IMG/VR virus record: IMGVR_UViG_3300026521_000471
Coordinates: 58,518-122,517 of that record
From: a virus
DNA length: 64,000 nt
Direction: 5' to 3' (one strand)
Below, in pieces: positions 9,335 through 13,748 of the stretch. The first letter of the stretch is position 1; every line of letters starts with the position of its first letter. Below the pieces are notes generated by a model that worked only from the letters and a program-made list of their open reading frames with translations, searched no databases and had not been told where the DNA came from. Both the position numbers and the translations under genes were made by a program.

Positions 9335-9698
9335 TGGATGATCTCAGGCTATTAATTTATTTTAATAGGAATCGCAAAGAATCATCAAATAATTGTTAAA
9401 TTTAATCTATATATAATAGACAGTAGTTGCAGGAATTGAATTCTCCTAAGACGACTCAATGTGCTAATAATGAAAGGTTAGCAGTCGCTATATTCTCTGT
9501 AAGTGAGATAAGTATGGAAATAAGTTGGTAAAACCAAATGACACCATAAACATTTAAGAAATGTAGTTTGATAATTAGTATGAAATAACAACCTACGGTT
9601 ATCAGAGGGTCATCCGACAGATAATTAAGTTTATCTGACCCGTACCTTGGAATAGGTCTAGCGATATTATATATATTTTATAAACTATCTTTAAATAA
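9335..9698 (+). ncRNA. Structured non-coding RNA block
   Basis: No credible gene. Many stems can be drawn: CGACT/AGTCG enclosing GCTAA/TTAGC near 9455-9490, CAGATAA/TTATCTG near 9620-9640 inside GGGT/ACCC, and TTGGT/ACCAA near 9524. An outer AT-rich stem joins about 9408-9420 with about 9665-9678. Family not identified; group I intron and phage 'ornate' RNAs are candidates. Confidence 0.45.
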
Positions 9699-9853
9699 TT
9701 TTACCGAAGCCTCTCGTTAGGTTGGGGTTCGATTCCCTACGAAAAAGTAGCTCTTTTTCATAACTTGGAGGAACCTAAGTGATGCCCGAAGTTGAGGTTC
9801 GATTCCTCTGTAAGGGTAGCTCCCTTTGTAATACATGGTGGGCTTCGGTAAAA
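9699..9853 (+). ncRNA. Long-stem RNA with two T-arm modules
   Basis: A perfect 13-bp outer stem joins 9699-9711 and 9841-9853. Inside are two T-arm hairpins with canonical TTCGATT loops (about 9730-9746 and 9800-9815). Each is followed at once by a hairpin closed over the loop TAGCT (GAAAAAG/CTTTTTC and AAGGG/CCCTT). The T-arm then closed-acceptor order is what a permuted tRNA precursor would show, but convincing D-arms and anticodons are missing. Confidence 0.5.
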
Positions 9854-9902
9854 TTATTACAAACAAAAATAAATAAGTATATCTTATGATCGAGGTGTAC
9901 TT

Positions 9903-10040
9903 ATGAAACTAGTAATAATTTTTTTACTCCTTTTGCTTTTTACAGGATGTAAAGAACCTACAAAAGAGGAAAAAGCTAAAAAACAAGAACAAGCTAAGTT
10001 ATTATTAATTCTAGATTCAATAGAAAATCAAAAAAATTAA
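9903..10040 (+). CDS. Small lipoprotein (45 aa)
   Basis: Start ATG 9903 lies behind GAGG. A hydrophobic signal of about 13 residues ends in the lipobox LFTGC, followed by a short Lys/Glu-rich tail, so the mature form would be a tiny charged lipoprotein. It stands alone among structured RNAs. Possible roles include an outer-membrane spanin-like lysis peptide or a superinfection-exclusion peptide; neither is shown. Confidence 0.7.
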   Translation: MKLVIIFLLLLLFTGCKEPTKEEKAKKQEQAKLLLILDSIENQKN

Positions 10041-10046
10041 TATAAT

Positions 10047-10069
10047 TTTAAGGTTACTTTTTGTATAAT
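10047..10069 (+). promoter_or_regulatory. Promoter for structured RNAs
   Basis: TTTAAG at 10047-10052 and TATAAT at 10064-10069. The predicted start point coincides with the first base of the stem at 10076. Confidence 0.75.
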
Positions 10070-10075
10070 ATCAAT

Positions 10076-10154
10076 ATAAGTTTTAGTTTCAACTATTTTA
10101 AATAGTAGTTAGAAGATTTAGGTTTAAGAAATTAGACCTTCTACTAAGACTTAT
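10076..10154 (+). ncRNA. Branched RNA element
   Basis: An 11-bp outer stem (10076-10086 with 10144-10154, one G-U pair) encloses two hairpins, near 10090-10110 and 10111-10141. It begins at the predicted transcription start. Confidence 0.5.
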
Positions 10155-10156
10155 AA

Positions 10157-10299
10157 ATTAACTTTTTAGTGTTACCAAATAAAAAAGATATAGCAGCTTA
10201 ACTGCCTCTACTTTATAAATGTTAGAACACTCCTTTATTTTTTAGAACTCCTTTGTTGGGTTATTTGAGTTACTAATTTGGTAGCACTAAAAAGTTAAT
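10157..10299 (+). ncRNA. RNA element with 24-bp outer stem
   Basis: Bases 10157-10180 pair with 10276-10299 over 24 bp; the only departure from Watson-Crick is one U-G pair, which suggests selection on RNA pairing. Internal hairpins include GCAG/CTGC near 10192 and AACTC/GAGTT near 10247-10272. Confidence 0.6.
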
Positions 10300-10318
10300 T
10301 TTAAAAAATTAAGTTTAT

Positions 10319-10341
10319 TTTAAGAACTTTTTTTGTATAAT
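10319..10341 (+). promoter_or_regulatory. Promoter for large structured RNA
   Basis: TTTAAG at 10319-10324 and TATAAT at 10336-10341, separated by a T-rich run. Confidence 0.75.
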
Positions 10342-10349
10342 TACTTTAT

Positions 10350-12225: not shown

Positions 12226-12226
12226 T

Positions 12227-12384
12227 GATTGAGAATTAAACTAAGAAAATACATCGAAGTAAAACCGCTGACATATTGTCTTGTTGGTTCGAGTCCAACC
12301 TTCCCCACCAGTTTATATGGGTGAAGTGGTGAAATTGGTAAACACGGCGGATGATAAAATATTTCTTAGGATTCAATCTCAATC
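12227..12384 (+). tRNA. Circularly permuted tRNA-Leu(TAA) gene
   Basis: The 3' half comes first, 12260-12310: TAAAA, anticodon 3' strand CCGCT, variable-arm hairpin GACA-TAT-TGTC, T-arm GTTGG-TTCGAGT-CCAAC, acceptor CTTCCCC, A, CCA. The 5' half follows at 12320-12352: acceptor GGTGAAG, TG, D-arm GTG...CAC with GG in the loop, anticodon 5' strand GGCGG, then AT. Joined, the loop reads ATTAAAA, anticodon TAA, split after U33; the 84-base product is normal for tRNA-Leu. The only acceptor mismatch is T3-C70. Leader 12227-12259 and trailer 12353-12384 pair (GATTGAGA/TCTCAATC, CTAAGAAA/TTTCTTAG), extending the anticodon stem as in known permuted pre-tRNAs. A 9-base intervening sequence separates CCA from the 5' half. 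Confidence 0.88.
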
Positions 12385-12403
12385 AGGTCTGAAATAAAAA
12401 AGC

Positions 12404-12480
12404 GGACAATTAACTCAGTTGGTTAGAGTCACCGCCTCATAAGCGGGAGGTCGCTGGTTCGAGTCCAGCATTGTCCACCA
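12404..12480 (+). tRNA. tRNA-Met(CAT), elongator or Ile2
   Basis: Acceptor GGACAAT/ATTGTCC, anticodon loop CTCATAA, T-arm GCTGG-TTCGAGT-CCAGC, CCA encoded. The first acceptor pair is intact, so it is not the initiator; a lysidine-modified Ile decoder cannot be excluded. Confidence 0.92.
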
Positions 12481-13156
12481 TCAATACAAAAGTATCATTC
12501 AAAATCATTTTAATTTCACGCTCCTTTAAAACTATTAAATTATTAACAACGTCCCATTTTGCTTTATCTCTTTCTCGTTCATATCCTTTAACTTCAATAA
12601 ATATATTTAAATCGGGAATATAAAAATCTGGAAAATATAAGTGTTTTCTTCCTTTCCATTCATATTCAAATGGTTCTGTATCTCTAATATAGTTAATATC
12701 ATGTTCCACTAAATATTTTGCTACTATCACTTCCCATGTTCCATGAAATTTATCTCCATTAAATTCAATTATTTTTACTCTACCACAAACGTTATTAGCA
12801 GAATAACTATCTGGATTATTACGAACCATATCTCTCATTCGTTCTGATTGTTCAATTTTATACTTAGTACTTTTCATATATGCTTGAAAATTATCTGACA
12901 TAAAGCCTTGAGGTTCCCAACCATTAATTTCCATATTATGATGTTTGGTCCAATAATGATTTCTAAATTGACCAATAGTTTTAAAATGTTTATCGCATTT
13001 ATTACAAATATACTGATTATTATCTATATTAAGAAATTTATCTGACAACATATCTCTTTGATTTTTTTCACAAGCTTTTGTACCTATATGACTTTTTAAT
13101 TTAGTTAAAGAACTAAACTCTTTTCCACAATCAGAACATATTTTTGAGTCATTCAT
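12437..13156 (-). CDS. Homing endonuclease with zinc fingers and PD-(D/E)xK-type domain
   Basis: 239 residues. Two C2H2-like zinc fingers lie at about residues 8-32 and 50-72. The C-terminal domain contains YFPDFYIPD...IEVKG (about 180-200), the P-D...E-x-K arrangement of Vsr-like/EDxHD homing endonucleases. The last dozen codons read antisense through the tRNA-Met gene, so the reading frame ends inside that tRNA. It is one of only two leftward genes, which fits insertion of a mobile gene beside tRNA genes. Divergent from a small structured RNA at 13186. Confidence 0.75.
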   Translation of the reverse strand: MNDSKICSDCGKEFSSLTKLKSHIGTKACEKNQRDMLSDKFLNIDNNQYICNKCDKHFKTIGQFRNHYWTKHHNMEINGWEPQGFMSDNFQAYMKSTKYKIEQSERMRDMVRNNPDSYSANNVCGRVKIIEFNGDKFHGTWEVIVAKYLVEHDINYIRDTEPFEYEWKGRKHLYFPDFYIPDLNIFIEVKGYERERDKAKWDVVNNLIVLKEREIKMILNDTFVLMVDNAGLEPATSRL

Positions 13157-13173
13157 TAGTCTTCCCTTTTTTG

Positions 13174-13179
13174 TATAAT
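13174..13179 (+). promoter_or_regulatory. -10 element for small RNA 1
   Basis: T-run then GTATAAT, pointing right, 7 bases before the three-way-junction RNA and away from the leftward endonuclease gene. Confidence 0.6.
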
Positions 13180-13184
13180 TTAAT

Positions 13185-13251
13185 TAGAAGGACAGCAACT
13201 CATACTTCCCGAGTTGTTTCTTAATTGGTGCAAACAATTAAGATTACTTCT
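13185..13251 (+). ncRNA. Three-way-junction small RNA, copy 1
   Basis: AGAAGGACAG, hairpin CAACTC/GAGTTG, TTTC, hairpin TTAATTG/CAATTAA, GATTACTTCT; AGAAG and CTTCT close the junction. A second copy with the same single-stranded motifs but different stems lies at 32074, also beside a leftward homing endonuclease. Changed stems with conserved joiners indicate a selected RNA structure. Confidence 0.6.
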
Positions 13252-13315
13252 TTATTACTCTTATTTATACTTATTTTTAATCAATTTTAGAAACTTTCTA
13301 ATATTTTCAAAGGAA

Positions 13316-13349
13316 TTTAAGTTTATTTTAATATATATTATTGTATAAT
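13316..13349 (+). promoter_or_regulatory. Promoter for 13.4-kb RNA
   Basis: TTTAAG near 13316-13321 and TATAAT at 13344-13349, upstream of the structured block before tRNA-Phe. Confidence 0.6.
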
Positions 13350-13379
13350 ATTATAAATAAAAAGGTTATTAAAAATTAT

Positions 13380-13748
13380 ATTAGCCCACCATTAAAATAA
13401 TTGATTGCTTAAAGATTTCTTTGAAATTTTTCAGCAGTTAATAGAAATATTAACTTTAGCAAATGAGCCCAAGTATCACCCGAAGCTATTAAGTAGGGAT
13501 TGCCTCTCCATTGGAAGATGGCTTGGGAGCCGATTTAAACCGAAGTACAACTCTGTACAAGGACAGTTTTAAAACTGGTGGTTATGTGCTTTATTCCTAA
13601 AAGCAATGAGTAAAAATTAAGCGTGAAAAATAAAACTCAAAAATAAGGACAGAAAGATGAATTTTACATTTAGTAAGTCCTACTATAAATCAGTCTAATT
13701 CAATAGGGTTTGTAGTAGGACGTTAATATAATAACAGAAAACTACAAA
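13380..13748 (+). ncRNA. Structured non-coding block before tRNA-Phe
   Basis: No gene seen. Stems include CCCAAG/CTTGGG (about 13468/13523), TTAATA/TATTAA, GTAC/GTAC and the palindrome CAGTTTTAAAACTG (about 13563). At the 3' end two mutually exclusive stems exist: 13677-13689 with 13709-13721, or 13706-13715 with 13742-13751. The second covers the first bases of the next tRNA. Confidence 0.45.

What the first reader, a model, noticed from the sequence alone, without database searches (positions are those of the whole stretch)
9335..13748. Family of long-stem RNAs with G-U-only deviations
Non-coding gaps hold inverted repeats of 11-24 bp around 80-170-base multi-hairpin interiors, at 10076, 10157, 11273 and 12055, with more at 19864 and 20139. 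Where arms are not identical complements the change is almost always a G-U pair, which implies selection as RNA. Several start right at predicted transcription starts. They share the outer-stem architecture of the permuted tRNA next to them.
Basis: partly seen in the sequence, partly recalled or inferred. Interest (0 to 1): 0.78.

Follow-up and report, generated by a model that had tools for sequence, protein, structure and literature searches.

The report
Phage Y RNAs for phage-encoded Ro60
A large bacterial virus carries, among its tRNA genes, a set of small RNAs closed by long stems; at least two look like Y RNAs, known partners of the RNA-binding ring protein Ro60, and the virus encodes its own Ro60 about 110 kb away.

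Summary
Six inverted repeats of 18-26 bp with 95-155-nt interiors lie only in non-coding gaps of the phage's tRNA clusters. They score 40-55; shuffled sequence never exceeds 33.5. Under scoring neutral to G·U versus A·C, their deviations are 7 G·U, 0 A·C and 1 U·U, as expected if the + strand RNA is selected. Interiors are no more stable than shuffled sequence; the stems carry the signal.

The phage (224 kb, IMG/VR) encodes a Ro60/TROVE protein. In seven unrelated Ro60-encoding phages, the gap upstream of Ro60 holds circularly permuted tRNA-like RNAs, sub-threshold Rfam YrlA hits and, in three, tandem 13-29-bp outer stems with 94-151-nt loops. That is the bacterial Y RNA architecture. In 11 such RNAs an ACUUCG/ACAUCG-type motif sits 15-19 nt inside the stem. 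The 11273-11421 RNA fits (ACAUCG at +17), the only such match above chance in the phage. The 'permuted tRNA' (12226-12385) also fits.

So two members are well supported as Y RNAs. Those at 10155, 12054, 19864 and 20137 share only the stem, and no homologues were found for covariation. The gap at 10348-11268 is a GOLLD RNA. Known kind, unusually placed and below Rfam's thresholds.

The parts
11273..11421 (+). Long-stem RNA, best Y RNA candidate: 23-bp perfect outer stem (11273-11295/11399-11421), 103-nt interior, UUACAUCG motif at 11310-11317 (ACAUCG 17 nt inside the stem)
   Evidence: motif spacing as in 11 RNAs upstream of Ro60 in other phages; only genome-wide template match above chance level
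12226..12385 (+). Permuted tRNA-Leu(UAA)-like RNA on an imperfect outer stem (12226-12251/12360-12385), AUACAUCG motif 12249-12256; 3' half ends ~12310 with CCA, 9-nt linker, 5' half starts 12320
   Evidence: ARAGORN on half-swapped windows; model of phage Y RNAs: 46.5 bits, full length; tandem ordinary tRNAs reach 41.7
12054..12226 (+). Long-stem RNA in tandem with the permuted one; 23-bp stem, 127-nt interior; no Y motif found
   Evidence: TATAAT box ~10 nt upstream (sequence)
10155..10301 (+). Long-stem RNA, 26-bp stem, 95-nt interior; no Y motif found
10075..10155 (+). Small long-stem RNA, 13-bp stem around two hairpins; TGTATAAT box just upstream
   Evidence: folding z -4.7
9694..9858 (+). 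18-bp perfect stem enclosing two T-arms, each followed by a hairpin with loop UAGCU (permuted, capped-acceptor tRNA-like units in tandem)
10348..11268 (+). GOLLD RNA region (3' domain 10767-11268) with a tRNA-like element 10830-10899 inside
   Evidence: RF02032 110.7 bits, E 8e-29, gathering score 150; folding z -6.7
19864..20030 (+). Long-stem RNA, 24-bp stem with 2 G·U, 119-nt interior; no exact Y motif
20137..20341 (+). Long-stem RNA, 25-bp stem with 3 G·U, 155-nt interior; no Y motif
19680..19846 (+). Weaker candidate: AAACAUCG at 19705 inside a bulged 13-14-bp closing stem
   Evidence: folding z only -1.0
23203..23490 (+). Weaker candidate: UUACAUCG at 23237 inside a 10-bp closing stem
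19561..19661 (+). tRNA-like in normal order with 12-bp extended acceptor and two T-arms (different class)
   Evidence: sequence
22947..23023 (+). tRNA-like in normal order with 11-bp extended acceptor and one T-arm (different class)
   Evidence: sequence

Best explanation
The long-stem RNAs are, at least in part, the phage's Y RNAs: small RNAs whose 5' and 3' ends pair into a long basal stem that binds the ring protein Ro60, which the same phage encodes (G000:182137-183636, about 112 kb from the RNAs). The part beyond the stem is an effector module. In 12226-12385 it is a circularly permuted tRNA mimic (T-arm, acceptor stem closed by a short linker, D-arm) sitting where a tRNA's anticodon arm would continue into the stem. 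By analogy with the Rsr-YrlA-PNPase complex, the Y RNA would tether Ro60 to an RNA-processing enzyme (host PNPase, or one of the phage's own RNA-repair enzymes) during infection, aiming it at structured or damaged RNA such as cleaved tRNAs. Shown: the stems, the permuted tRNA-like domain, the motif and its spacing in 11273-11421, the Ro60 gene, and the same RNA architecture beside Ro60 in other phages. Inferred: transcription, Ro60 binding, the enzyme partner, and that the motif-less stems (10155, 12054, 19864, 20137) belong to the same set.
For: Ro60 (TROVE plus Ro60 vWA domain) in the same phage, 50.7% identical to Ro60 of Vibrio phage Va1 and matching solved TROVE proteins. ARAGORN on half-swapped windows finds one permuted tRNA in the window, none in 5 shuffles; over 2.0 Mb of phage DNA counted on both strands it finds only this one and the permuted tRNA of three Vibrio phages. 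The Vibrio element has 72% matches in Rhizobium phages, ~0.7 kb upstream of their Ro60 gene. Seven Ro60-encoding phages (Rhizobium, Caulobacter, Gordonia, Streptomyces, Xanthomonas, Brevundimonas, crAss-like) carry permuted tRNA-like RNAs and YrlA hits (28-50 bits, gathering 69) just upstream of Ro60; three of them have strong outer stems in tandem, some without a tRNA module, above shuffles. In 11 of those RNAs the motif lies 15-19 nt inside the stem; in 11273-11421 ACAUCG is at +17. Template test: above score 34 only 11273-11421 in the own genome, no hit in three other phage genomes, other hits only in the Ro60 loci. The gap upstream of Va1's Ro60 contains AAUACAUCG, as in the window's permuted RNA.
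Against: Rfam YrlA does not hit the window's long-stem elements even at E 5. They are ~112 kb from Ro60, whereas Y RNAs usually lie next to it; the gap before the phage's own Ro60 shows no such RNA. Four of the six strongest stems plus 9694 lack the motif. No homologues, hence no covariation. WWACATCG alone is not enriched in the window (9 found, 5.1 +/- 2.5 expected). The model of phage Y RNAs scores the permuted RNA (46.5 bits) only slightly above tandem ordinary tRNAs (41.7). Long stems also occur in a relative's tRNA cluster (G004) in which no Ro60 was found, though that element is tRNA-like in normal order and the record may be partial.
Confidence: 0.72

Rival explanations
1. The permuted tRNA-Leu is a real tRNA gene: the long stem holds the anticodon ends together, a nuclease cuts them, the phage's RNA ligase/Pnkp seals U33 to U34, and RNase P plus 3' processing open the circle at the linker. 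The other long stems would be processing stems of the same sort.
For: ARAGORN reads a complete tRNA-Leu(UAA) with encoded CCA across the swapped halves. The phage encodes Pnkp, Hen1, RlaP, Thg1 and a T4-type RNA ligase. The inferred junction is, from general knowledge, the site cut by anticodon nucleases such as PrrC.
Against: The same architecture sits beside Ro60 in unrelated phages with linkers of 1-12 nt and varied, often implausible anticodons, as expected of a mimic rather than a tRNA gene. One U·C mismatch lies in the acceptor stem. Bacteria have no known bulge-helix-bulge endonuclease (general knowledge).
Confidence: 0.08
2. The stems are RNase III processing stalks that release structured RNAs (GOLLD and others) from long transcripts, as pre-rRNA stems do; no Ro60 involvement.
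For: Near-perfect 23-26-bp stems; position next to GOLLD and tRNAs.
Against: Does not explain the motif at fixed spacing, the permuted tRNA module, or the same arrays beside Ro60 elsewhere. Interiors are not more stable than chance.
Confidence: 0.12
3. Motif-less stems (10155, 12054, 19864, 20137) are domains of a further large ornate RNA class of the GOLLD/ROOL type.
For: 19353-20560 is ~1.2 kb of non-coding DNA behind one TGTATAAT box (sequence); GOLLD is present nearby.
Against: No Rfam match, no homologues in 50,697 phage records, interiors unremarkable.
Confidence: 0.12
4. DNA-level inverted repeats: ends of small mobile elements (MITE-like) or chance palindromes.
For: The Va1 stem element is a clean cassette: the same slot holds a homing endonuclease in phiKT1024/phiTY18 and a small ORF in TDDLMA.
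Against: Arms differ between elements; chance excluded; deviations are G·U on one strand only.
Confidence: 0.03

Closest known systems
Bacterial and phage Y RNAs (YrlA, Rfam RF02553; partner Ro60/Rsr; Rsr-YrlA-PNPase complex, reviewed in PMC8394870)
   Same: Long basal stem from paired 5' and 3' ends, ~80-200 nt, tRNA-like domain with D, T and acceptor arms in permuted order, Ro60 encoded in the same genome, tandem arrays with and without tRNA module, ACWUCG-type motif just inside the stem
   Different: ~112 kb from Ro60, inside the tRNA clusters beside GOLLD; AT-rich, no YrlA hit on these elements; several stems without motif; one tRNA module with an encoded CCA
Circularly permuted tRNA genes (red/green algae, Thermofilum; PMC3978253, PMC3218864)
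   Same: 3' half precedes 5' half, short linker at the acceptor ends, complementary leader and trailer
   Different: No bulge-helix-bulge evidence; found beside Ro60 in phages; probably a mimic, not a tRNA gene
GOLLD RNA (RF02032)
   Same: Located in a phage tRNA cluster; present at 10348-11268 with an embedded tRNA-like element
   Different: The long-stem RNAs lie outside the GOLLD match and do not match the model

Membership tests
Y RNA (YrlA-like) | 5' and 3' ends form a long basal stem | tested here: met
Y RNA (YrlA-like) | tRNA-like domain (D, T, acceptor arms) inside the stem | tested here: met
   met for 12226-12385; partial for 9694-9858; not seen in the others
Y RNA (YrlA-like) | ACWUCG-type motif ~17 nt inside the stem, as in Y RNAs next to Ro60 of other phages | tested here: met
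   met for 11273-11421 at +17; present nearer the stem in 12226-12385; not met for 10155, 12054, 19864, 20137, 9694
Y RNA (YrlA-like) | Ro60/Rsr encoded in the same genome | tested here: met
Y RNA (YrlA-like) | gene adjacent to Ro60 (usual, not obligatory) | tested here: not met
   ~112 kb apart; in Va1 the permuted RNA is ~20 kb from Ro60
Y RNA (YrlA-like) | match to Rfam RF02553 at the gathering score | tested here: not met
   phage Y RNA candidates beside Ro60 also stay below it
Y RNA (YrlA-like) | binds Ro60 | not testable with these tools
   needs pull-down or binding assay
GOLLD (RF02032), region 10348-11268 only | match to the conserved 3' domain | tested here: inconclusive
   full-length match, E 8e-29, but 110.7 bits is below the 150-bit gathering score
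Group I intron / permuted intron-exon | match to the intron model RF00028 | tested here: not met
   no hit up to E 5
Permuted tRNA gene | complete cloverleaf after swapping halves | tested here: met
Permuted tRNA gene | spliced/ligated mature tRNA | not testable with these tools
   needs RNA sequencing

The most novel reading that the evidence does not exclude
The permuted tRNA-Leu(UAA) is both tRNA mimic and tRNA gene: the phage's own anticodon-repair enzymes (Pnkp, RNA ligase) seal it into a circle that RNase P and 3' processing open into a working tRNA, making it the first permuted tRNA gene matured in a bacterial cell and linking Y RNAs to permuted tRNAs.
Probability: 0.06. Interest if true: 0.85.

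Novelty: new member of a known kind. Interest (0 to 1): 0.5.

Why it matters
If right, one phage carries a Ro60 protein, several Y RNAs, a GOLLD RNA, tmRNA, more than 20 tRNAs and a large RNA-repair set. That makes it a good system for asking what phage Ro60-Y RNA particles do, for instance whether they steer decay or repair of tRNAs cleaved by host defences. It also shows that phage Y RNAs can sit far from Ro60 and below Rfam's thresholds, so they are under-annotated. The half-swapped tRNA search plus the stem-and-motif template is a cheap way to find more.

Tried and rejected
Rfam at gathering and permissive thresholds: only tRNAs and GOLLD on the elements. Sequence homologues of the long-stem RNAs in 50,697 phage records: none beyond tRNA and promoter matches. 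Viral-contig scans with neighbouring proteins mostly gave nothing; the nucleotidyltransferase alignment gave relatives, but the closest (56% identity, syntenic) has no tRNA cluster. A T-arm/GTAGCTC pattern from 9694-9858 found one similar element in another phage and one coding match. Shared interior sequence among the elements: none. Group I intron, single MITE family and RNase III-only readings: see rivals. Covariation within Vibrio phages was not usable: the stem element of Va1/pv27 is 97% identical and replaced in the others. Listeria phage P100, whose relative has a Ro-like protein and abundant ncRNAs (PMC12282133), shows no permuted tRNA in the part scanned; its stem hits overlap repeated promoter-like sequence.
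Full report
OBSERVATION. The window is part (58518-122517) of a 224,467-base virus record. The six best long helices in the whole 64 kb lie in its non-coding gaps at 9694-9858, 10155-10301, 11273-11421, 12054-12226, 19864-20030 and 20137-20341, with scores of 40-55.5; 100 dinucleotide shuffles of the non-coding DNA reach at most 33.5. With G·U and A·C scored alike, the deviations are 7 G·U, 0 A·C, 1 U·U. DNA-level pairing predicts equal numbers of G·U and A·C, so this supports selection on the + strand RNA (sign test 0.008, on few sites). Interiors are not more stable than shuffles, whole elements are. Arms and interiors share no sequence.

WHAT LIES BETWEEN. 10767-11268 matches the GOLLD 3' domain end to end (110.7 bits, E 8e-29, gathering score 150), with a tRNA-like element inside. 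The region 10348-11268 folds far better than shuffles (z -6.7). This large RNA is distinct from the long-stem elements.

THE PERMUTED tRNA. Swapping the two halves of sliding windows and running ARAGORN finds one permuted tRNA in the window, at 12226-12385, read as tRNA-Leu(UAA) when introns up to 200 nt are allowed; five shuffles give none. In 2.0 Mb of phage sequence (both strands counted) the only other hits with short linkers are one permuted tRNA locus in three Vibrio phages, Va1, pv27 and phiKT1024. All of them have a long closing stem or complementary flanks.

THE LINK TO Ro60. The phage encodes a TROVE/Ro60 protein; the nearest listed relative is in Vibrio phages including Va1 (50.7% identity). 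Va1's permuted element matches Rhizobium phages at 72%, about 0.7 kb upstream of their TROVE gene. I then read the Ro60 loci of eight phages. In seven of them (Rhizobium, Caulobacter, Gordonia, Streptomyces, Xanthomonas, Brevundimonas, crAss-like; not Thermus phiLo) the gap upstream of Ro60 holds one or more permuted tRNA-like RNAs and YrlA matches of 28-50 bits (gathering 69). The Caulobacter, Streptomyces and Brevundimonas loci also hold tandem outer stems, some of them without a tRNA module, above shuffles. This is the published Y RNA anatomy: a large stem of paired 5' and 3' ends plus a tRNA-like domain (PMC8394870). That Y RNAs lie near Ro60 in phages was reported by Chen et al. 2014 (cited in PMC12282133; the original was not readable here).

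THE MOTIF. Aligning 16 of these tRNA-like RNAs shows a conserved [A/U][C/U][A/U]UC motif upstream of the T-arm. Across 11 outer-stem RNAs beside Ro60 it starts 15-19 nt inside the stem. In the window, 11273-11421 has ACAUCG at +17. A joint test (stem score at least 24, loop 85-165, AC[A/U]UCG at +11 to +21), run on both strands of this phage and of three others, returns 11273-11421 at 49.0 and otherwise only single hits at 24.0 and 25.5; strong hits occur only in the Ro60 loci. The permuted RNA 12226-12385 carries AUACAUCG, and the gap upstream of Va1's Ro60 carries AAUACAUCG. The octamer alone is not enriched in the window, so the weight rests on spacing and context.

OTHER LONG STEMS. The stems at 10155, 12054, 19864 and 20137 have neither motif nor tRNA module. 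Y RNA arrays of other phages also contain stems without a tRNA module, but those keep the motif, so membership of these four is inferred only. 9694-9858 encloses two T-arm units with capped acceptor-like hairpins and fits the tRNA-like side of Y RNAs, without the motif. 19561-19661 and 22947-23023 (sequence) have the T-arm next to the 3' arm, in the normal tRNA order, as do elements in phage G004 (L048:4057-4190) and Va1 (record 194641-194813). These look like tRNA-derived elements with extended acceptors, a different class. The Va1 one is a cassette: the same slot holds a homing endonuclease or a small ORF in near-identical phages.

MECHANISM. Most likely the basal stem binds the Ro60 ring and the distal part recruits an enzyme, as in the Rsr-YrlA-PNPase complex (PMC8394870). 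In this phage the candidates are host PNPase or its own RNA-repair proteins: Pnkp, Hen1, RlaP, a T4-type RNA ligase and Thg1. Binding, expression and partner are inferred.

LIMITS. There are no close homologues, hence no covariation. The Ro60 gene is ~112 kb away. Rfam YrlA does not hit these elements. The model built here scores the permuted RNA at 46.5 bits, against 41.7 for tandem ordinary tRNAs, so it does not separate them well. The eight Ro60 loci were picked from a spread list, not at random, and the motif pattern was refined on the same loci it was tested on, except for the window and the three comparison genomes.

NOVELTY. Known kind (phage Y RNAs), new members, unusual in place and number.

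Noticed in passing
G000 outside the window: L025:3589-4842, L025:6620-9310, L025:13866-15005, L025:17885-19288, L021:4928-6436: Large RNA-repair set in one phage: Hen1, Pnkp (kinase-phosphatase-ligase), Thg1-like, T4-type RNA ligase, RlaP.
   Followed up: partly
L022:2531-3682 (G000) and window 35847-37697: Phage-encoded elongation factor Tu and an aspartyl-tRNA synthetase relative.
   Followed up: no
L025:19437-19818 (-), and L048:8843-9130 in relative G004: tmRNA genes in both phages.
   Followed up: no
window 16509-18695: Chemoreceptor gene (NIT, MCPsignal, CZB domains) in a phage, 728 aa.
   Followed up: no
window 16129-16168: Minimal tRNA-like element: acceptor stem plus T-arm with encoded CCA and no D or anticodon arm; Rfam reads it as a truncated tmRNA (28.5 bits).
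   Followed up: partly
window 10767-11268: GOLLD RNA below Rfam's gathering score, with a tRNA-like element inside the 3' domain match.
   Followed up: partly
window 11407-11427 / 11507-11527: The 3' arm of the 11273 stem can pair instead with a downstream repeat (21 nt, 1 mismatch), a possible alternative fold.
   Followed up: no
L080:44641-44813 with L082, L081, L083, L084: Cassette exchange in a Vibrio phage tRNA cluster: long-stem tRNA-like element, homing endonuclease or small ORF in the same slot.
   Followed up: partly
L048:4057-4190 and ~4730-4820 (phage G004): tRNA-like elements with extended acceptor stems in the tRNA cluster of a relative in which no Ro60 was found.
   Followed up: partly
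L026:6995-7152 (G000): A further 24-bp AT-rich inverted repeat with a 110-nt loop in a non-coding gap.
   Followed up: no
L030:1500-1900 (-): T-arm followed by GTAGCTC next to a tRNA-Asn in another viral contig, resembling the units in 9694-9858.
   Followed up: no
L085 (Listeria phage P100): Ro-like protein, a gene annotated tRNA splicing ligase, RNA ligase and tRNA cluster together; long inverted repeats at 21597-21901 seem to contain promoters.
   Followed up: no
L022:5833-7023 (G000): TnpB/IS605-type gene.
   Followed up: no
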